The notes under the pieces were generated by a model, which had not been told where the DNA came from, did not search any database, and saw only the letters and a list, made by a program, of their open reading frames with translations. The translations under genes and the position numbers were made by a program. Shown piece by piece: positions 6,441 to 20,594 of a stretch of DNA of 35,043 nucleotides; position 1 is the stretch's first letter; each line of letters opens with the position of its first letter. The stretch comes from Scytonema sp. UIC 10036 (GTDB lineage: Bacteria; Cyanobacteriota; Cyanobacteriia; Cyanobacteriales; Nostocaceae), in the NCBI RefSeq assembly GCF_009725235.1, contig NZ_WJFC01000133.1:1-35043 (forward strand), in the 5' to 3' direction.

Positions 6441-8018
6441 ATGAAGAATGACGTAATTAAAATTTTGTTTTTGACAGCTGAACCTACCAATGCTGCTAGC
6501 CTCCGTGTAAAACAAGAATTGCGAGATATCAGAGAAAAAATTCAATCTGCTTACCAGCGTGAAAGATTTCTGCTTGAGTATAGGTTAGCTGCACGTCCTG
6601 GAGATATTAGCCAAGCAATACTAGATTTTACTCCTGATATTGTGCATTTTTCCGGACATGGTACCAGTACTGGTGAGCTTTGCTTTGAAGATGAATTCGG
6701 TCAAATATCTCCTGTAGAACCTAAGGCTCTAGCTGCTTTGCTTGAATTAGTGGCTGAGCGGGTGCATTGTGTGATTCTAAATGCCTGTTACTCTGACGCT
6801 CAAGCAAAGGCTATAGTTAAGCACATCCCTTTTGTCATTGGCATGAAACGAGAGATCGGCGACAGGGCTGCGATCGCATTTGCTATCGGTTTTTACAAAG
6901 CTCTAGGGGCGAATCGCTCCGTTGAGGAGGCTTATGAGTTTGGGTGTGTGGAAATCCAGTTGCAAGGTATTGCAGAAGAGCTAACCCCTATTATCCGTAA
7001 AAAAGTAGACAAATTACCTACCGATTTTTATATAGATCGCCCTCCTATCGAACAACACTGTTACAAAGCAATTAAACAGCAAGGTGCCTTAATTCGGATC
7101 AAAGCGCCTGAGAAGATGGGGAAAACATCTCTCATGAACCGAATTCTCAGTTATGCTAGAGATAGTAGCTATCAAACAATAACTTTAAGTTGTCAGAGTT
7201 TAGTAGATGGCACAGTTGCAACGGACTTGAAAAAATTCTTACGCTCGTTTTGTGTTGTTGTGGGTAACGAGCTAGGGCTAGCCAATAAGTTAAATGAGTA
7301 TTGGGACAATCAAGTTAGTTGCAACTACAACAGCAGGTATTACTTTCAAAAATACTTGTTGCCAAACATTGCTAGTCCTATAGTACTAGCCTTGGATGAT
7401 GTTGATTCTGTGTTTGAACATCCAAAAATTGCCCCAGACTTTTGTAAATTCCTCCGCAATTGCTATGATTTAGCAAAACGAGGCGATTCCAACAGCATAA
7501 TTTGGGAAAAACTTCGTCTGATCGTTGTTCATTCAACCGAAGTTTATGCCTCCCTAGATATAAATAATTCACCCCTTGCAAATGTTGGGGTCATTATTAA
7601 TTTACCAGAGTTTACTCTAGACCAAGTGCAGCGTTTGGTTAAGCGTTATCGACTAGATTGGACAGCATCTCGGGTTGAGCAACTTATGGCTATGGTAGGA
7701 GGACATCCTCTTTTAGTGAAAACGTCTCTTGATTGGGTTAAGCTTCAACAAAAGACACTTAAGGAGCTATTACAGGCTGCACCTACTGCATCAGGAATAT
7801 TTAGTGACCATCTGCGTGAACTTTGGGAAAATTTGGAAAATAAACCAGAGTTAAAAACAGCGTTTAGTAAAGTTGTACGCGCAGATGAGGATGACCCAGT
7901 TCAGTTAAATCCGATACAGGCAAAGTCTTTACAACGTTTAGGACTGGTGACATTACAAGGTCATTTTGCCAAGCCGCGCTGCGAATTGTATCGTCAGTAT
8001 TTTTGTGTTTATCTTTAA
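6441..8018 (+). CDS. CHAT (caspase-like) domain fused to AAA-like STAND-type ATPase
   Basis: The N-terminal CHAT domain (about 6-170) has the catalytic-type histidine in HFSGHGT (H73) and cysteine in LNACYS (C116), plus the usual IGM...IGDRAAIAFAIGFY block, so a cysteine-protease dyad is intact. An AAA-like (AAA_35-type) domain follows, with a P-loop KAPEKMGKTSLM (222-232), Walker B IVLALDDVD (314-322) and a winged-helix-like tail ending YRQYF. No membrane segment is seen, so it should be cytosolic. The next gene starts 48 bp downstream and carries the same class of ATPase fused to a membrane-spanning ligand-binding domain, so co-transcription and partnership are likely. CHAT-STAND proteins are often linked to regulated cell death or defence; the substrate is unknown here. 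Confidence 0.85.
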   Translation: MKNDVIKILFLTAEPTNAASLRVKQELRDIREKIQSAYQRERFLLEYRLAARPGDISQAILDFTPDIVHFSGHGTSTGELCFEDEFGQISPVEPKALAALLELVAERVHCVILNACYSDAQAKAIVKHIPFVIGMKREIGDRAAIAFAIGFYKALGANRSVEEAYEFGCVEIQLQGIAEELTPIIRKKVDKLPTDFYIDRPPIEQHCYKAIKQQGALIRIKAPEKMGKTSLMNRILSYARDSSYQTITLSCQSLVDGTVATDLKKFLRSFCVVVGNELGLANKLNEYWDNQVSCNYNSRYYFQKYLLPNIASPIVLALDDVDSVFEHPKIAPDFCKFLRNCYDLAKRGDSNSIIWEKLRLIVVHSTEVYASLDINNSPLANVGVIINLPEFTLDQVQRLVKRYRLDWTASRVEQLMAMVGGHPLLVKTSLDWVKLQQKTLKELLQAAPTASGIFSDHLRELWENLENKPELKTAFSKVVRADEDDPVQLNPIQAKSLQRLGLVTLQGHFAKPRCELYRQYFCVYL

Positions 8019-8066: not shown

Positions 8067-10790
8067 ATGAATCAAGAACAAGAATATTATCAGGTAGGAG
8101 GAACTTTAAACTCAGATGCTCCTAGTTATATAGAAAGGAAAGCAGACAAAAATATTTATGAGGAACTGAAAGCTGGAAATTTTTGTTATGTATTCAATTC
8201 CCGACAAATGGGGAAGTCCAGCTTGCAAATCCGAGTCAGAAAAAAGTTAGAAACTGAAAACATTGCCTGTGCTATTATTAGTCTAGATGAAATTGGGACT
8301 GAAGGTGTCACTCAAGATCAATGGTATTATACTTTAGTTAAAAATTTGTCAGATAACTTTGAGTTACCATCAAATCGATTATCAGCTTGGTGGCAAGAAC
8401 GAAAGTTATTAACTCCTGTAAAACGATTAAGTGATTTTATTGAAGAAATATTACTATCCCAAATTTTTCAGAATATTGTTATTTTTCTAGATGAAATTGA
8501 CACTGTTCTCAGTTTAGACTTTCCAACAGACGATCTCTTTGCTTTTATTCGAGGTTGTTATAACCAGCGTGCGAATAATTTGAAGTATAGTAGAATTACT
8601 TTTGCATTGTTAGGAGTGGCTACACCCTCTCAATTAATTCAAGATAAGCGACGCACACCCTTTAACATAGGTCAAGAAATTCAATTAAATGGTTTTTCAT
8701 TTGAGGAAGCTCGACCCCTAGCTCAAGGATTAGAGAGTAAAGTCAGTCACTCTCAAATTGCTGAAGATATACTTCGAGAGGTTCTTAATTGGACAGGTGG
8801 TCAACCCTTTCTAACTCAAAAAATATGTAAAATAATTGCCGATTCTCAAGATTTTATCCCTGTTCACAAACAAGCTATACAAAGATGGATTGAGCAAGTC
8901 GTCATTTCAAAAATTATTGAAAATTGGGAAGAACAGGATAATCCCCAGCATTTGAAGACCATTAGTGACAGAATTATCAATAGTAAATATCCCACTTTTA
9001 AATTACTGAATATCTATTTGGAAATTTGCCAAAAGCAAAAAATACAAGCTGATGGTAGCTCAGAACAAAGTGAACTGATGTTATCAGGTTTGGTTGTAGA
9101 AAAAAACAAAATATTAGTCATTTATAACCTTATTTATCAATATGTTTTCGATACAAATTGGGTTAGAGAAATGTTATTGAATATACGACCATATGGTAAG
9201 GAATTAACAGGATGGAAGACTGATAAAAATAAATCTTGGTTACTACAGGGAAGAAAATTACGTGAAGCGTTATCATGGCAGGTTGATAAAACTTTGAGGA
9301 ATGAAGATTATCAGTTTCTTAATGCTAGCCTAGAACTGGCAGTAAAGAATTATCGAATTTGGCGAATATCTACAATAGTATTTGCGATCGCAATAACAGG
9401 AGTACTCATTTGGCAGCAATTACCCAAAACAATAGTAGGTTTCTTTGTTCCATACATATCAGAACCAGAGCTATTTAGCGATGGCAAAAAAACTTTCTTT
9501 CTGGGAAATGGCAATTTTCATCAACAACAGGGTGTTGAAGCTTTTAAAAAAGCAGATTATTCACAAGCAAAGGAACTCTTTAAAAAAGCCAAAGAAAGTG
9601 ATAGAAATGATCCAGAAGCAGAAATTTATTACAATAATACACTAGCACATGAAAAAGGTAATCCTCTGACTTTGGCAGTTGCTGTTCCTATAAATTCTAG
9701 AAGAGAAAGGGCTACAGAAATATTGAGAGGAGTTGCACAAGCACAGTCTGAGATTAACAACAAAGGTGGATTAAAAGGTCGATTGCTAAATATCATAATT
9801 GCTGATGATAAGAATGACCCAAACCAAGGTCAAAGAGTTGCGGAGGAATTGATTAAAGATTCAAATGTTTTAGGAGTCATTGGACACAATAGTAGCCCTG
9901 TTAGTCAAGCTGCACTGACTAAATATAAAGATAAAAGCTTAGCAATGATATCTCCTAGCAGCACCAGTACCGAATTAACTATGGAAAAATTTAAAGTTTT
10001 CTTTAGAACAGTTCCTTCTGATGCAAAAAATGGTGAAAAATTAGCTGAATATACTTATAAGAATAATATCAAAACAGTTGTTATTTTCTATACAAAAGGA
10101 GAGATTTATAGTGAAAGTTTAAAGAAAGCTTTTGAACAATCCTTTAAACTTAATGGAGGAAAAGTTGTCCGTTCCAGAGATTTGGCAGATCCAAACCTGA
10201 ATGCATCTGCTGAAGTATTACTTAGTATATTTGACGATAAAGCCGATGCAGCTGTCTTTTTCCCTAATCTTGAGCTTATCTCTACCGTGATTGACATTGC
10301 GAAGGCTCAAGAAAATAAAGCAGGCTTGCCAAGAAAGCTACGCTTGCTAGGGGGAGACTCTATGTACAATGCTGATACTTTAAAAAAAGGTAAAAAGGCT
10401 CTTGAAGGCTTAATCTTGACAGTACCTTGGTTTGAAGAATCCCATTCAGAATCATTTGCACGGAAAGCTTGCACAAAATGGCAAGGGGGAATTAGCTGGC
10501 GAACTGCTGCTAGTTATGATGCAACTAAAGCTTTCATCAAAGCTATAGAATTGGCTATGGCATTGTCCACAAATCCTTCTCGCCAAACTGTACTTGAAAA
10601 ACTCAATTCTATCGAGCTTTTACCTAATGAAACTTCAGGACATAAGCTCAAATTCAACAAAGGCGAGCGGATTAAGGAACCGGAGCTTGTGAAAGTAGCT
10701 AAAGGATCGGGTAATGCGTGCAAGGGTCTTGAAGAAGGCGGATTTCATTTTGAAAAAGTAGACGCCAAGGCGCAAAGTATTTCTTCTTAG
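8067..10790 (+). CDS. AAA-like ATPase-transmembrane-periplasmic binding protein fusion (putative sensor)
   Basis: The N-terminal AAA-like domain (about 5-370) has a P-loop SRQMGKSSL (45-53) and Walker B IVIFLDEID (137-145). A single hydrophobic segment follows at about 433-452. A short TPR-like helical linker (about 485-530) leads to a type-1 periplasmic binding fold of the branched-chain amino-acid receptor class (about 535-880), with LAVAVPINS...A.EILRGVAQAQSEIN, GVIGHNSSPVS and ISPSSTSTEL. Expected topology puts the ATPase in the cytosol and the ligand-binding domain outside. No permease genes are adjacent, so it is better read as a sensor than as transporter cargo binding. It lies 48 bp after the CHAT-AAA gene. 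Start at 8067 fits the conserved YYQVGGTL beginning. Confidence 0.85.
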   Translation: MNQEQEYYQVGGTLNSDAPSYIERKADKNIYEELKAGNFCYVFNSRQMGKSSLQIRVRKKLETENIACAIISLDEIGTEGVTQDQWYYTLVKNLSDNFELPSNRLSAWWQERKLLTPVKRLSDFIEEILLSQIFQNIVIFLDEIDTVLSLDFPTDDLFAFIRGCYNQRANNLKYSRITFALLGVATPSQLIQDKRRTPFNIGQEIQLNGFSFEEARPLAQGLESKVSHSQIAEDILREVLNWTGGQPFLTQKICKIIADSQDFIPVHKQAIQRWIEQVVISKIIENWEEQDNPQHLKTISDRIINSKYPTFKLLNIYLEICQKQKIQADGSSEQSELMLSGLVVEKNKILVIYNLIYQYVFDTNWVREMLLNIRPYGKELTGWKTDKNKSWLLQGRKLREALSWQVDKTLRNEDYQFLNASLELAVKNYRIWRISTIVFAIAITGVLIWQQLPKTIVGFFVPYISEPELFSDGKKTFFLGNGNFHQQQGVEAFKKADYSQAKELFKKAKESDRNDPEAEIYYNNTLAHEKGNPLTLAVAVPINSRRERATEILRGVAQAQSEINNKGGLKGRLLNIIIADDKNDPNQGQRVAEELIKDSNVLGVIGHNSSPVSQAALTKYKDKSLAMISPSSTSTELTMEKFKVFFRTVPSDAKNGEKLAEYTYKNNIKTVVIFYTKGEIYSESLKKAFEQSFKLNGGKVVRSRDLADPNLNASAEVLLSIFDDKADAAVFFPNLELISTVIDIAKAQENKAGLPRKLRLLGGDSMYNADTLKKGKKALEGLILTVPWFEESHSESFARKACTKWQGGISWRTAASYDATKAFIKAIELAMALSTNPSRQTVLEKLNSIELLPNETSGHKLKFNKGERIKEPELVKVAKGSGNACKGLEEGGFHFEKVDAKAQSISS

Positions 10791-10927: not shown

Positions 10928-10956
10928 TTGACAAATTCTCTAGGTTTGTTTACAAC
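10928..10956 (+). promoter_or_regulatory. putative promoter of the thrS leader
   Basis: A consensus TTGACA (10928-10933) is followed after 17 bp by TACAAC (10951-10956), which matches the -10 consensus at four of six positions. A start near 10963 would give a leader of about 400 nt carrying both leader ORFs and both terminators. Confidence 0.5.
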
Positions 10957-11006
10957 TTAAAATATGCACCGCAAATTCTATCGAGCAAACATAAGAGTGC
11001 CTAATC

Positions 11007-11087
11007 ATGCAACTTAAGCTCCGTCTAACAACCAGAACACGAACTACCCTGACTATCAGTCTGGGAGGTTGTGAGGCTAGCATATAG
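11007..11087 (+). CDS. candidate leader peptide 1 (Thr-rich)
   Basis: A 26-residue ORF beginning MQLKLRLTTRTRTTLTIS. It has six Thr codons within nine positions (ACA ACC AGA ACA CGA ACT ACC CTG ACT), also Leu- and Arg-rich. It ends 22 nt before the first terminator hairpin. No strong ribosome binding site is visible. Its position, size, Thr content and the similar but stronger leader downstream suggest a regulatory peptide rather than a functional protein. It may be less specific for Thr than leader 2. Confidence 0.55.
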   Translation: MQLKLRLTTRTRTTLTISLGGCEASI

Positions 11088-11147
11088 ACTCACAAATAAT
11101 AAGGCTGTGAAACCCTCCTGGTAAGTGCTTGGGGGGTTTTTGGTTTT
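11061..11147 (+). terminator. attenuator 1: intrinsic terminator with possible competing pairing
   Basis: Terminator stem of nine pairs, 11110-11118 with 11131-11139 (AAACCCTCC / GGGGGGTTT, one G-T), 12-nt loop, followed by a T-rich tract to 11147. The segment 11061-11068 (CTGGGAGG), inside leader ORF 1, can pair with 11114-11121 (CCTCCTGG, two wobble pairs) and would exclude the terminator. A separate hairpin, TTGTGAG 11069-11075 with CTCACAA 11089-11095, has the leader stop codon in its loop. The hairpin and T-tract are plain; the switch is inferred. Confidence 0.65.
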
Positions 11148-11210: not shown

Positions 11211-11279
11211 ATGACTTTTTTCACTTACCTCATAACAACCACTACCACTACCACTACCATCGCGCCTAGAGGGACGTGA
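11211..11279 (+). CDS. threonine leader peptide (thrS attenuator)
   Basis: A 22-codon ORF with product MTFFTYLITTTTTTTT followed by IAPRGT and TGA. Eleven of 22 residues are Thr, and codons 9-16 are eight Thr codons in a row (ACA ACC ACT ACC ACT ACC ACT ACC). This is the same logic as the enterobacterial thrL leader, although the sequence is not homologous. It lies just upstream of a strong terminator and of a threonyl-tRNA synthetase gene. No Shine-Dalgarno is obvious, which is common in cyanobacteria. Both sequence and position support a leader whose translation speed reports charged tRNA-Thr. Confidence 0.85.
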   Translation: MTFFTYLITTTTTTTTIAPRGT

Positions 11280-11340
11280 AGTGATTTGTTGCGTACAAGC
11301 AAGATTCACCCCTCCAGGCTAGCCCGGAGGGGATTTTTAT
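11269..11340 (+). terminator. attenuator 2: terminator with competing antiterminator
   Basis: Terminator: CCCCTCC (11309-11315) pairs with GGAGGGG (11326-11332), 10-nt loop, then ATTTTTATTT. Antiterminator: GAGGG (11269-11273) with CCCTC (11310-11314), extended after a 2-nt bulge by GTGAA (11276-11280) with TTCAC (11305-11309), ten pairs in all. The upstream antiterminator strand covers the last codons and stop of the Thr leader (stop at 11277). A ribosome finishing the peptide would mask it and let the terminator form, while a ribosome stalled in the Thr run (11235-11258) would leave it free. The pairings are seen directly; the mechanism is inferred. Confidence 0.8.
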
Positions 11341-11364
11341 TTGTCAACAATACTTAGGAGATTA

Positions 11365-12619
11365 ATGACAATGTACGACCATCGAGTTCTGGCTAAAAAT
11401 ATGGATCTGTTTCATTTTGAAGAACACAGTCCGGGTATGGTTTTCTGGCATCCCATGGGTTTGAGACTCTTCCGGATTATCGAAGATTATATGCGGCAAG
11501 TTTATCAGTCTCGTGGATTTGAGGAAGTGCGATCGCGAAGCGCAAGCTGTACCCAGCTTATCGCCTTTAGTATTGAGCCGTTCGCTTTGGGAAAAATCCG
11601 GTCACTGGGAAAAATTTGGCAACAATATGTTTTTTGTAGGCAGTATTAACCGGGATAACTATGCTGATATCGAAAACCCAGAGTTAGAAGCTATTGATTA
11701 TGCTCTAAAACCAATGTCTTGTCCGGCTCACATTGCTATTTACAAGTCACGTAAGCGGAGTTATCGAGAAATTCCCATGCGGCTTATGGAGTTTGGTATT
11801 GTTCATCGCAATGAACCTTCTGGTTCTTTATCTGGTTGTATGCGCTTGCGTCAGTTTGTACAGGATGATGCCCACATTTTCTGTCAAGAAAAGGATTTGA
11901 CGAATGAGATTAATAGCTTTCTCAAGATGGTGAGTGAAGTTTATTCAGCATTTGGCTATAAACATTTTGCTATCCGGATTTCTACAAGACCAAAACAGCG
12001 ATTGGGTTCTGACGAGCTTTGGGACAAGTCGGAAGCAGCCTTGATAGGAGCATGTCAATCTTTAGGGTATGCTTACGAGATATTACCGGGAGAAGGCGCT
12101 TTTTACGGTCCCAAAATTGAAGTTAGTTTGGAAGACCGCCTTGGAAGATCTTGGCAGTGCGGTACAATCCAAGTTGACTTTAACCTCCCCCAAATTTTCG
12201 AGCTTGCTTTTGTCAATAAAGACGGGCAACTCGAACAACCAGTCATGTTACACCAGGCTGTTTTAGGCTCTCTTGAACGCTGGATTGGAATTTTGTTGGA
12301 GAATCAAGAAGGCGCGTTGCCTCTTTGGTTAGCCCCAGTCCAAATTGCTGTCGCTTCAATTTCTGAAAAATCTGCAGACTGGGCAGAAGCCATCGCTACA
12401 GAGATCGAGTCAATGGGAATTAGGACGGAACTTTATGTTGGCGATCGCACGATTTCTAAAAAGATTCGAGAACTTTCAGCAAAAAAAGTTCCTCTGATTG
12501 CGGTAGTTGGGGAACAAGAAAAAGTCAATGGTACTGTTAATCTTCGCCACCTGGGTATTGCAGGGCAGGAAGAAATTAAATTTGCCAAACTTAAGGAGGA
12601 TCTGAAGTCTTTTGCTTAA
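11365..12619 (+). pseudogene. thrS: threonyl-tRNA synthetase paralogue, catalytic core only, frame broken by a 28-bp insertion
   Basis: The protein starts MTMYDHRVLAKNMDLFHF after a good AGGAG about 7 nt upstream of 11365. It directly enters the class II catalytic core (motif 1 region GMVFWHPMG), so the TGS and editing domains of ordinary ThrRS (about 600 residues) are absent. At 11536 the frame is lost and resumes in the next frame at 11564. Removing 11536-11563 restores VRS-PLVLSRSLWEKSGHW and one ORF of 408 codons. Later parts are intact: motif 2 (FGIVHRNEPSGSLSG), zinc ligands C in MSCPAH, H in DDAHIF and H in VMLHQA, motif 3 (LGSLERWIGI), and the anticodon-binding domain (from WLAPVQIAV). 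Anabaena has a second ThrRS with impaired proofreading induced by low zinc; this may be its counterpart. As written it cannot make a full enzyme. Confidence 0.85.
11536..11563. mobile_element. 28-bp hairpin insertion in thrS (small dispersed repeat type)
   Basis: The insert starts CGAAGCGCAAGCTGTACC and ends AGCTTATCG. It contains the inverted repeat AAGCT-gtaccc-AGCTT and is bracketed by ATCGC direct repeats (11532-11536 and 11560-11564). Its size, palindromic core and placement beside a GCGATCGC site resemble the very small mobile repeats described in Nostoc and Anabaena. Because 28 is not a multiple of three it shifts the frame. Confidence 0.7.
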
Positions 12620-19180: not shown

Positions 19181-19867
19181 TCAAGAAGAATTCTCATTTT
19201 TTTTGACTAAAATTGTTATACAAAAATAACTAGCAATTAGCTTTGTTAGACTTAATGCATTACTTTTTAAAAGAATAAAAGTTCCCAATCCTATTAAGAC
19301 AAAAGGAACAAAATAATTACCATATCGAGTTAGAATATCGGCTATTTCTTTTTGACGAGTTAATTGGTAAGCTACATAACACCAAACTCCTATCAAGATA
19401 CAAAAAATAGAGACAACTATCAAAAAACTTGCTAAATTACCGCTAGCAAATAACGGCACGTAGACACTGATATTATCACTACCGTTAGCAATTGTTACAG
19501 ATGCAACACTATAAGTTTGAGGAGAAACTAATCCAGAAAAAAATAATTCTTCAGAATCTTCTGTCTCAGATTTGTCTTCCTCTGAAGAATCTTCTTCCCC
19601 ATTCACCAAACTGCTAATACCTATAGCAATTGGCATTAAACCAAGTAATCCAATCCAGTGAGCCGATAAAACTAACCCCCCAAATAAACCAGAAAGACTG
19701 GCAACAATCAGTATAAAAAAACCCAGATACTGACCTGTAATAATATGCTTGTAAGTGAAGGTAGCATTTACTTGAGAAAAAAACAATAATAGGATGAGAA
19801 GGTCATCTATATTAGTGGCAGTAAAGGCAAGGATTCCCGTGCTAATTGCAGCGATCGATTCACCCAT
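19181..19867 (-). CDS. CadD-like (LysE superfamily) exporter, copy 1
   Basis: A 228-residue membrane protein with about five to six hydrophobic segments. It has the family hallmarks FTATNIDDLLILLLFFSQVN (about 15-34) and NGSDNISVYVPLFA (about 126-139), and a strongly acidic cytoplasmic loop (NGEEDSSEEDKSETEDSEE). Founding members are plasmid-borne cadmium-resistance proteins; the substrate here is unknown. It is divergent from copy 2 with 73 bp between starts, so the two may share control. The right end of a MITE lies about 8 bp beyond its stop codon. Confidence 0.85.
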   Translation of the reverse strand: MGESIAAISTGILAFTATNIDDLLILLLFFSQVNATFTYKHIITGQYLGFFILIVASLSGLFGGLVLSAHWIGLLGLMPIAIGISSLVNGEEDSSEEDKSETEDSEELFFSGLVSPQTYSVASVTIANGSDNISVYVPLFASGNLASFLIVVSIFCILIGVWCYVAYQLTRQKEIADILTRYGNYFVPFVLIGLGTFILLKSNALSLTKLIASYFCITILVKKNENSS

Positions 19868-19940
19868 ATTGTCTTTATTGTTTAATTCCTAGCCAAGACG
19901 CATTCGTTTTTTATTAAGTAACACTCTCATAAAAGCAACC

Positions 19941-20594
19941 ATGACTACGCTTTGGGCAGGTTTCACAGAAGGTATAATTGCTTTTGTAGCAACCAATATT
20001 GATGATATCTTAATCCTTATACTTTTTTTCTCTCAAGTAGATGCTAATTTTCGCAAACGCCATATCATCATTGGTCAATACCTTGGTTTTTCAGCTATTA
20101 TCATCGCTAGCCTACCAGGATTTTTTGGTGGTTTGGTAGTGCCGCCTGAAGTCATTGGATTGCTTGGATTATTACCTATAGCAATTGGCATAAAAAAGCT
20201 GTTGAGTCAAGAAGAATCTACAGAAGTTCAGACTGTAACTAGCGATTTTAAGCCATTGTCATCAAACGATCCTCGGTCTTTCCTAGTCAGTCTTTTGCAC
20301 CCTCAAACTTATAAAGTAGCAGCAGTCACTCTTGCCAATGGCGGCGATAATATCAGCATCTACATACCGTTATTCGCAGGAAATACCTATGCCAGTATGG
20401 GTGTGATTTTGATAGTCTTTTTGGTTATGGTTGGGGTTTGGTGTACGATCGCTCACCTCTTAGCCCGTCAAGAAGCGATCGCTCATATTTTAACCCGCTA
20501 CGGTAGAGCGGCGGTTCCTTTCGTATTGATTTGTTTGGGCTTATTCATTATGTACGAACGAGGTACCCTCGCATGGCTTTACTCACACTGGTGA
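19941..20594 (+). CDS. CadD-like (LysE superfamily) exporter, copy 2
   Basis: A 217-residue paralogue of the divergent neighbour. Conserved blocks are VATNIDDILILILFFSQVD, HIIIGQYLGFSAIIIASLPG, LHPQTYKVAAVTLANGGDNISIYIPLFAG and HILTRYGRAAVPFVLICLG. The middle loop is less acidic than in copies 1 and 3, so metal handling may differ. Its last 12 bp overlap the convergent TauE/SafE gene, which leaves no room for a terminator and makes antisense interference between the two mRNAs possible. Confidence 0.85.
   Translation: MTTLWAGFTEGIIAFVATNIDDILILILFFSQVDANFRKRHIIIGQYLGFSAIIIASLPGFFGGLVVPPEVIGLLGLLPIAIGIKKLLSQEESTEVQTVTSDFKPLSSNDPRSFLVSLLHPQTYKVAAVTLANGGDNISIYIPLFAGNTYASMGVILIVFLVMVGVWCTIAHLLARQEAIAHILTRYGRAAVPFVLICLGLFIMYERGTLAWLYSHW

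What the first reader, a model, noticed from the sequence alone, without database searches (positions are those of the whole stretch)
11211..11340. Threonine leader peptide and transcription attenuator upstream of a cyanobacterial thrS
A 22-codon ORF has 11 Thr codons, eight consecutive. Its stop codon lies inside a strand (11269-11280) that can pair over ten positions with 11305-11314, excluding a strong terminator (11309-11332 plus T-run). Stalling at Thr codons would leave the antiterminator strand free, while completing the peptide would mask it. Ribosome-mediated attenuation is classic in proteobacterial amino-acid operons; B. subtilis thrS uses T-boxes instead. I know of no well-described example in cyanobacteria, though I cannot search.
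Basis: partly seen in the sequence, partly recalled or inferred. Interest (0 to 1): 0.85.

Follow-up and report, generated by a model that had tools for sequence, protein, structure and literature searches.

The report
Tandem threonine attenuators guard backup thrS
In front of a spare, shortened threonyl-tRNA synthetase gene, some cyanobacteria carry two switches in a row, each a tiny threonine-rich reading frame plus a terminator, which should turn the gene on only when charged threonine tRNA runs short.

Summary
A second upstream unit of the same design (10928-11141) was missed. The gene is not the housekeeping thrS: it is an accessory, catalytic-domain-only ThrRS ("thrS3", my label) found in 12 of 388 genomes sampled from one cyanobacterial order and on two Acaryochloris plasmids. 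In 26 loci collected, 26 keep a Thr-rich leader before an antiterminator strand and 25 keep two units in tandem (in the window, unit 1's frame misses its stop). All 23 genomes checked also carry a full-length thrS. Geometry is rigid: the stop codon starts 9 nt after the start of GGAGGG, which pairs with CCCTCC of the terminator, and the last Thr codon of the run lies about 12 nt before it. That is what a ribosome stalled on Thr codons, versus one at the stop, requires; E. coli thrL is similar. Thr is kept while third codon positions drift. In the window, thrS3 itself is broken by a 28-nt dispersed repeat. I judge it a new variant of ribosome-mediated attenuation. No wet evidence.

The parts
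10928..10933 (+). TTGACA, putative -35 element of the promoter ahead of both attenuators
   Evidence: TTGACA 100-135 nt upstream of the unit-1 antiterminator strand in 20 of 24 loci; not found there in L081, L082, L149, and the script stopped at a nearer TTGACT in L135
11007..11087 (+). unit 1 leader ORF (MQLKLRLTTRTRTTLTISLGGCEASI, 6 Thr); its frame misses the stop codon used in relatives
   Evidence: alignment with L151 and L152 shows a one-base deletion before the usual stop
11063..11068 (+). unit 1 antiterminator strand (R2)
   Evidence: duplex with R3 -12.6 kcal/mol
11113..11141 (+). unit 1 terminator: CCCTCC arm (R3) to end of T-run
11211..11279 (+). unit 2 leader ORF, 11 Thr of 22 codons
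   Evidence: Thr kept in relatives
11264..11279 (+). unit 2 antiterminator strand, holding the leader stop codon (core AGAGGG 11268-11273)
11309..11338 (+). unit 2 terminator and T-run; its 5' arm is shared with the antiterminator partner 11306-11319
11356..11360 (+). AGGAG, putative ribosome binding site of thrS3
   Evidence: read
11371..12619 (+). thrS3, accessory threonyl-tRNA synthetase without the N-terminal TGS and editing domains; reading frame interrupted
   Evidence: Pfam tRNA-synt_2b and HGTP_anticodon on 11513-12616; downstream piece 94% identical over 349 residues to a 404-aa Scytonema hofmannii protein
11536..11563 (+). 28-nt insertion in thrS3 that shifts the frame; copy of a dispersed repeat
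   Evidence: absent at this site in L151 and L152; with up to 2 mismatches 45 copies in genome G924 and 13 in G946

Best explanation
Two ribosome-mediated transcription attenuators in series control an accessory threonyl-tRNA synthetase that lacks the editing domain. One promoter makes a leader with two units. In each, a ribosome follows RNA polymerase through a Thr-rich leader. If Thr-tRNA is plentiful it reaches the stop codon and covers the GGAGGG strand, the CCCTCC strand pairs onward, and transcription ends. If Thr-tRNA is scarce it stalls on the Thr codons with its front edge just short of GGAGGG, which captures CCCTCC and lets polymerase pass. Since both units must be passed, leakage should multiply (be squared if the units are equal), keeping the backup enzyme silent until Thr charging fails. 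Shown: the sequences, their conservation, geometry and folding potential. Inferred: translation of the leaders, stalling, read-through, the single promoter, the trigger.
For: Conservation: leader, antiterminator strand and terminator before thrS3 in 26 of 26 loci, two units in 25. Specificity: model R1 gives 24 hits at E<=5e-11 in 388 genomes of the order, exactly two in each of 12 genomes, all with thrS3; the next hit is 2.6e-5. 22 of the 24 were in the model's training set; the two in G354 were not. Geometry: a stop codon at R2+9 in 24 of 24 unit-1 and 21 of 23 unit-2 copies; Thr at R2-12 in 23 of 24 (unit 1), at R2-15 and R2-18 in 22 of 23 each (unit 2). Amino-acid selection: in unit-2 codons -12 to -27 third positions differ from the commonest base in 0.17-0.48 of copies, first and second in 0.00-0.17. 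Exclusive pairing: core antiterminator pairs kept in 22-24 of 24 (unit 1) and 21-23 of 23 (unit 2); terminator core pairs in 21-24 and 22-23; sliding the antiterminator partner lowers pairing from 0.85 to at most 0.60 (unit 2) and from 0.75 to at most 0.63 (unit 1). Masked folding: a ribosome on the codon at R2-12 leaves the antiterminator in 42 of 47 units when R3 has just been made; a ribosome at the stop gives the terminator in 46 of 47. E. coli thrL: antiterminator at 5 of 7 stall codons, terminator at the stop, similar spacing. Controls: no Thr-run leader in 79 other thrS loci (four hold under 1.2 kb upstream of the match) or five full-length cyanobacterial ones.
Against: No RNA, translation or expression data. 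With the whole unit made, the minimum-energy fold is the terminator in 41 of 47 units even with a stalled ribosome, so the switch must be kinetic (the terminator also stays in the complete E. coli thrL at 7 of 7 stall codons). In 5 of 47 units, the window's unit 2 among them, the stalled state did not form the antiterminator even with R3 just made; in the window a long upstream hairpin survived the mask. In the window and L131 the unit-1 stop at R2+9 is not the stop the leader actually meets. L148 has lost unit 2. The core pairs hardly vary, so covariation support is modest and lies in flanking pairs; RNAalifold on an automatic alignment found no doubly changed pair. Terminator partners were chosen per unit for best fit. 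Loci are related by descent, so counts are not independent events.
Confidence: 0.88

Rival explanations
1. Translation-independent control: the leader RNA is bound by ThrRS itself or by tRNA (E. coli thrS-like autoregulation or a T-box), and the Thr codons are incidental.
For: The window's unit 2 has a strong hairpin enclosing the Thr codons; thrS genes elsewhere are controlled in these ways (recalled).
Against: No T-box or other Rfam match at gathering score in the window; Thr identity is kept while third codon positions drift, and the stop codon position is fixed relative to the antiterminator; each unit has its own terminator.
Confidence: 0.05
2. The two hairpins are ordinary terminators insulating thrS3 from upstream genes, and the leader ORFs are chance.
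For: They have the shape of intrinsic terminators.
Against: Upstream ORFs differ between most of the 12 loci compared by eye (L131 and L141 share one) while the leaders stay; 22 of 28 Thr-rich small ORFs in 409 kb are the leaders; a TTGACA precedes unit 1 in 20 of 24 loci.
Confidence: 0.02
3. The Thr-rich peptides are themselves functional (nascent-chain arrest or a small protein), not mere readers of Thr-tRNA.
For: The C-terminal PGGT of unit 2 is conserved.
Against: That C-terminus is explained by the RNA strand GGAGGGACGTGA; unit-1 peptides end differently; between the units only Thr richness and the RNA strand are shared.
Confidence: 0.05

Closest known systems
E. coli thr operon attenuator (thrL, Rfam RF00506)
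   Same: Thr-rich leader peptide; stop codon 8 nt after and last Thr codon 10 nt before the start of the antiterminator strand; terminator sharing the other strand
   Different: Controls thrABC biosynthesis (recalled; thrA seen), one unit, mixed Thr/Ile codons, different sequence: window scores 13.4 bits against a cut-off of 55, E. coli thrL 122.1
E. coli pheST attenuator (pheM leader; recalled, no call)
   Same: Ribosome-mediated attenuation of an aminoacyl-tRNA synthetase operon by its own amino acid
   Different: Phe, housekeeping enzyme, single unit (recalled)
Tryptophanyl-tRNA synthetase attenuator of Vecchione and Sello 2010 (paper not held; title seen in the reference list of PMC4787780; Streptomyces coelicolor recalled)
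   Same: Ribosome-mediated attenuation of an auxiliary synthetase gene
   Different: Trp; antibiotic-resistant enzyme of an actinobacterium
Salmonella mgtCBR tandem attenuators (PMC3641672, abstract and outline seen)
   Same: Two short-ORF attenuators in one leader
   Different: The two units there answer different signals (ATP and proline); here both are Thr-rich
Anabaena thrS1/thrS2 (T1/T2; PMC4787780, passages seen)
   Same: Duplicated cyanobacterial ThrRS with a stress-induced copy
   Different: T2 keeps an editing domain and is Zur-repressed; thrS3 lacks the N-terminal domains, is 42 and 40% identical to the two full-length ThrRS of Dulcicalothrix, and forms its own clade (with one of those two in the tree)

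Membership tests
ribosome-mediated transcription attenuator | short leader ORF rich in codons for the amino acid tied to the gene | tested here: met
   Thr-rich leaders before a ThrRS gene in 26 of 26 loci
ribosome-mediated transcription attenuator | mutually exclusive terminator and antiterminator sharing a strand | tested here: met
   47 units in 24 loci
ribosome-mediated transcription attenuator | geometry lets a stalled ribosome free, and a terminating ribosome mask, the antiterminator | tested here: met
   (42 and 46 of 47 units; the window's unit 2 is one of the 5 that fail the stalled case); E. coli thrL 5 of 7 stall codons
ribosome-mediated transcription attenuator | leader is translated and read-through rises when the charged tRNA falls | not testable with these tools
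   needs RNA-seq, term-seq or reporters
Rfam RF00506 Thr_leader | covariance model score above the gathering cut-off | tested here: not met
   window 13.4 bits against 55; L081, L130, L144, L151 no match, E. coli thrL 122.1
T-box | match to a T-box model | tested here: not met
   no Rfam family at gathering score in the window
threonyl-tRNA synthetase | class II catalytic core and anticodon domain, three zinc ligands | tested here: met
   Pfam; motifs holding the residues equivalent to E. coli C334, H385, H511 (numbers recalled) in 24 of 26 loci; the window and L141 frames stop before them
bacterial full-length ThrRS | N-terminal TGS and editing domains | tested here: not met
   Dulcicalothrix thrS3 residue 3 aligns to residue 243 of 1qf6; the 23 complete frames are 395-455 aa

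The most novel reading that the evidence does not exclude
thrS3 with its double attenuator is a self-contained, horizontally spreading rescue cassette. It senses failure of Thr-tRNA charging from any cause (zinc-starved main ThrRS, a ThrRS inhibitor, Thr hunger) without any protein regulator, and the two attenuators in series give a steep, low-leak response that makes a synthetase without an editing domain tolerable. If so, it would be the first ribosome-mediated attenuator shown in cyanobacteria and, as far as my searches reach, the first tandem in which both units read the same amino acid.
Probability: 0.4. Interest if true: 0.78.

Novelty: new variant of a known kind. Interest (0 to 1): 0.68.

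Why it matters
Ribosome-mediated attenuation is a textbook device of proteobacteria; a 2016 paper wrote that there is no reliable data for it in cyanobacteria (PMC4833913, passages seen). Here is a conserved candidate with controls, in named strains (Dulcicalothrix desertica PCC 7102, Scytonema hofmannii PCC 7110, Acaryochloris marina MBIC10699). Doubling the same sensor suggests selection for low leak on an enzyme that lacks its editing domain, and makes the question of how steep such a switch can be directly testable.

Tried and rejected
Rfam at gathering score found nothing in the window; a permissive search gave five sub-threshold matches. Model R1 was also meant to find the same attenuator on other genes: 145 of 388 genomes have a hit at E<=0.1, nearly all weak; of the 19 loci L111-L129 examined by pattern only L111 (a thrS3 locus) and L112 matched, and L112 shows no Thr run; the remaining weak hits were not examined. 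So I have no evidence for other genes. Neighbour ORFs of thrS3 were compared by eye from their first 60 residues in 12 loci; apart from L131 and L141 I saw no shared neighbour, so no operon function was inferred. A zinc role was considered: of the two Acaryochloris copies one sits near a Fur-family regulator and the other near cysS, folE and M23 peptidase genes, but I saw no such set in the part of the window scanned with Pfam (19 ORFs), so it stays a lead. Inhibitor resistance of thrS3 was considered and dropped for want of evidence. RNAalifold on a MAFFT alignment misaligned the terminator arm, so pairs were counted by an anchored script. Phage records hold only relatives below 60% identity. 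A phylum sample of 386 genomes gave 5 hits at E<=1e-130: 2 thrS3 already known and 3 long-frame (643-646 aa) ThrRS.

Results against uniformity: L148 has lost unit 2 and L149's unit 1 has only a short T-run. L131's unit-1 frame ends 12 nt early. Unit-2 stops of L130 and L141 lie 5-6 nt further on, that of L152 3 nt further on. For L141 the codon table was shifted by one base to follow its leader frame. Dropped rows: L140, L141, L150, L151, L152 and the window are not in the tree (20 of 26 thrS3); L151 and L152 are not in the codon and pairing tables (24 loci, 47 units). In one search the two Dulcicalothrix full-length loci were scanned on one strand only; this was redone on both strands. The looser threshold gave 16 hits in 1.28 Mb (both strands) of the 79 control loci, none examined further.

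Full report
What is there. The 22-codon ORF at 11211-11279 has 11 Thr codons, eight in a row. It is followed by a terminator (11309-11332, T-run 11334-11338) whose 5' arm can instead pair with the strand that holds the leader stop codon. The local RNA folds 4.4 standard deviations better than shuffles. About 200 nt upstream lies a second unit: TTGACA (10928), a Thr-rich frame from 11007, the strand GGGAGG (11063) and a terminator (11113-11141).

The gene. Downstream is a threonyl-tRNA synthetase that starts at the catalytic domain; residue 3 of the Dulcicalothrix protein aligns to residue 243 of 1qf6. In the window its frame is interrupted by a 28-nt insertion (11536-11563). The insertion is absent at this site in two relatives and is a dispersed repeat: with up to two mismatches 4 of 99 genomes of the family hold it, with 45 copies in G924, 13 in G946 and one each in two others. 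The downstream piece is 94% identical over 349 residues to a 404-aa Scytonema hofmannii PCC 7110 protein. A tree of 36 proteins puts the 20 thrS3 proteins included (of 26 loci) in one clade with support 100/100, apart from proteobacterial ThrRS and from one full-length Dulcicalothrix ThrRS, which sits on a long branch. Intact copies exist: 23 of 26 loci have frames of 395-455 aa; L150 ends early (325 aa), L141 breaks off near a contig end, the window is interrupted. All 23 whole genomes searched hold at least one further ThrRS match with an open frame of 562 aa or more, so thrS3 is accessory there. Of the 120 best homologues listed, those with an organism name are all cyanobacteria. Two copies are on Acaryochloris marina plasmids typed as conjugative.

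Conservation of the leaders. The 26 loci are: the window; 12 of 388 genomes of the order (11 by protein; G354 by model); 9 further ones among 388 genomes of the class (its tally is 11, two of them known before); two plasmids; two close relatives. All 26 have at least one Thr-rich leader plus antiterminator strand and terminator; 25 have two such units. L148 has lost unit 2. L149's unit 1 was found by eye and has a short T-run. The window's unit-1 leader reads past the usual stop because of a one-base deletion relative to both close relatives. A covariance model of 28 units finds 24 strong hits in 388 genomes, exactly two in each of 12 genomes, and none of that strength in the other 376. 22 of the 24 were in its training set; the two in G354 were not. 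At E<=0.1, 145 genomes have a hit, nearly all weak.

Why it should read Thr-tRNA. Across 24 loci, codon by codon relative to the antiterminator strand R2: in unit 2 Thr stands at -12 in 19 of 23, -15 in 22, -18 in 22, -21 in 19, -24 in 20, -27 in 19; in unit 1 at -12 in 23 of 24 and at -21 in 21 of 24. Third positions vary more than first and second ones in the unit-2 run. A stop codon stands at +9 in 24 of 24 unit-1 copies (in the window it is out of the leader's frame, in L131 an earlier stop precedes it) and in 21 of 23 unit-2 copies. With a ribosome whose front edge is about 12 nt past the A-site codon (recalled), stalling on any codon of the run leaves R2 free, and the ribosome at the stop covers it. 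Folding with such masks gives the antiterminator in 42 of 47 units when R3 has just emerged and the terminator in 46 of 47 with the ribosome at the stop. The window's unit 2 is one of the five exceptions in the stalled case. Without a ribosome the complete unit folds into the terminator in 38 of 47 and the antiterminator in 8. In the complete unit the terminator wins energetically even in the stalled state in 41 of 47, so the decision has to be kinetic. E. coli thrL, run as a positive control, forms the antiterminator at 5 of 7 stall codons when R3 has just been made, while its complete unit keeps the terminator at 7 of 7. Its stop begins 8 nt after, and its last Thr codon 10 nt before, the start of its nine-pair antiterminator strand.

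Pairing. Core antiterminator pairs GGAGGG/CCCTCC are kept in 21 or more copies at every pair; sliding the partner strand lowers pairing. Variation with pairing kept is seen at the terminator flank of unit 1 (one pair is C-G in 5, G-C in 14, A-T in 3 of 24) and between units in the antiterminator flank. RNAalifold on an automatic alignment picks the antiterminator but reports no double change. Covariation is therefore supporting, not decisive.

Controls. The screen (plus strand, at least 6 Thr with a run) finds no Thr-run leader in 79 other thrS loci, mainly proteobacterial; four of these hold under 1.2 kb upstream of the match, perhaps too little to show a leader. Five full-length cyanobacterial thrS loci show none on either strand. 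With the looser threshold the 79 loci gave 16 hits in 1.28 Mb.

Literature. [quoted passage not shown] PMC3641672 (abstract and outline): tandem attenuators of mgtCBR, called a singular example responding to different signals. PMC4787780 (passages): thrS1 and thrS2 of Anabaena, thrS2 under Zur; [quoted passage not shown] Searches for cyanobacterial or ThrRS leader-peptide attenuation and for tandem attenuators listed no such case by title or abstract; the library holds open-licence papers only.

Verdict. It is a new variant of ribosome-mediated attenuation: in a phylum without reliable examples in what I could search, on an accessory truncated thrS, and doubled in series with the same amino acid. 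The function of the doubling and the natural trigger are inferred.

Noticed in passing
window 11536-11563: A 28-nt dispersed repeat sits inside thrS3 and shifts its frame; the same repeat has 45 copies in one 12.3-Mb relative (G924) and 13 in another (G946).
   Followed up: yes
window 6441-8018 and 8067-10790: Two adjacent AAA_35 proteins, one with a CHAT domain and one fused to a periplasmic-binding (ANF receptor-like) domain.
   Followed up: no
window 19181-20594: Two divergent cadmium resistance transporter (Cad) genes side by side, with two Rrf2 and one LysR regulator within about 5 kb.
   Followed up: no
L081 and L082: Acaryochloris marina MBIC10699 carries thrS3 on two plasmids: pREC2 with a Fur-family regulator nearby, pREC1 with cysS, folE and M23 peptidase genes nearby, possibly a zinc-limitation gene set.
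   Followed up: partly
L144 706-872, minus strand: Group II intron match (RF02001) upstream of a thrS3 locus.
   Followed up: no
L148 (reverse complement) about 1300-1480: Unit 2 has decayed: a leader remnant without CCCTCC or terminator, while unit 1 is kept; a natural single-attenuator variant.
   Followed up: partly
L150 (G790): thrS3 ends early (325 aa), so it lacks most of the anticodon-binding domain, yet both leaders are kept.
   Followed up: partly
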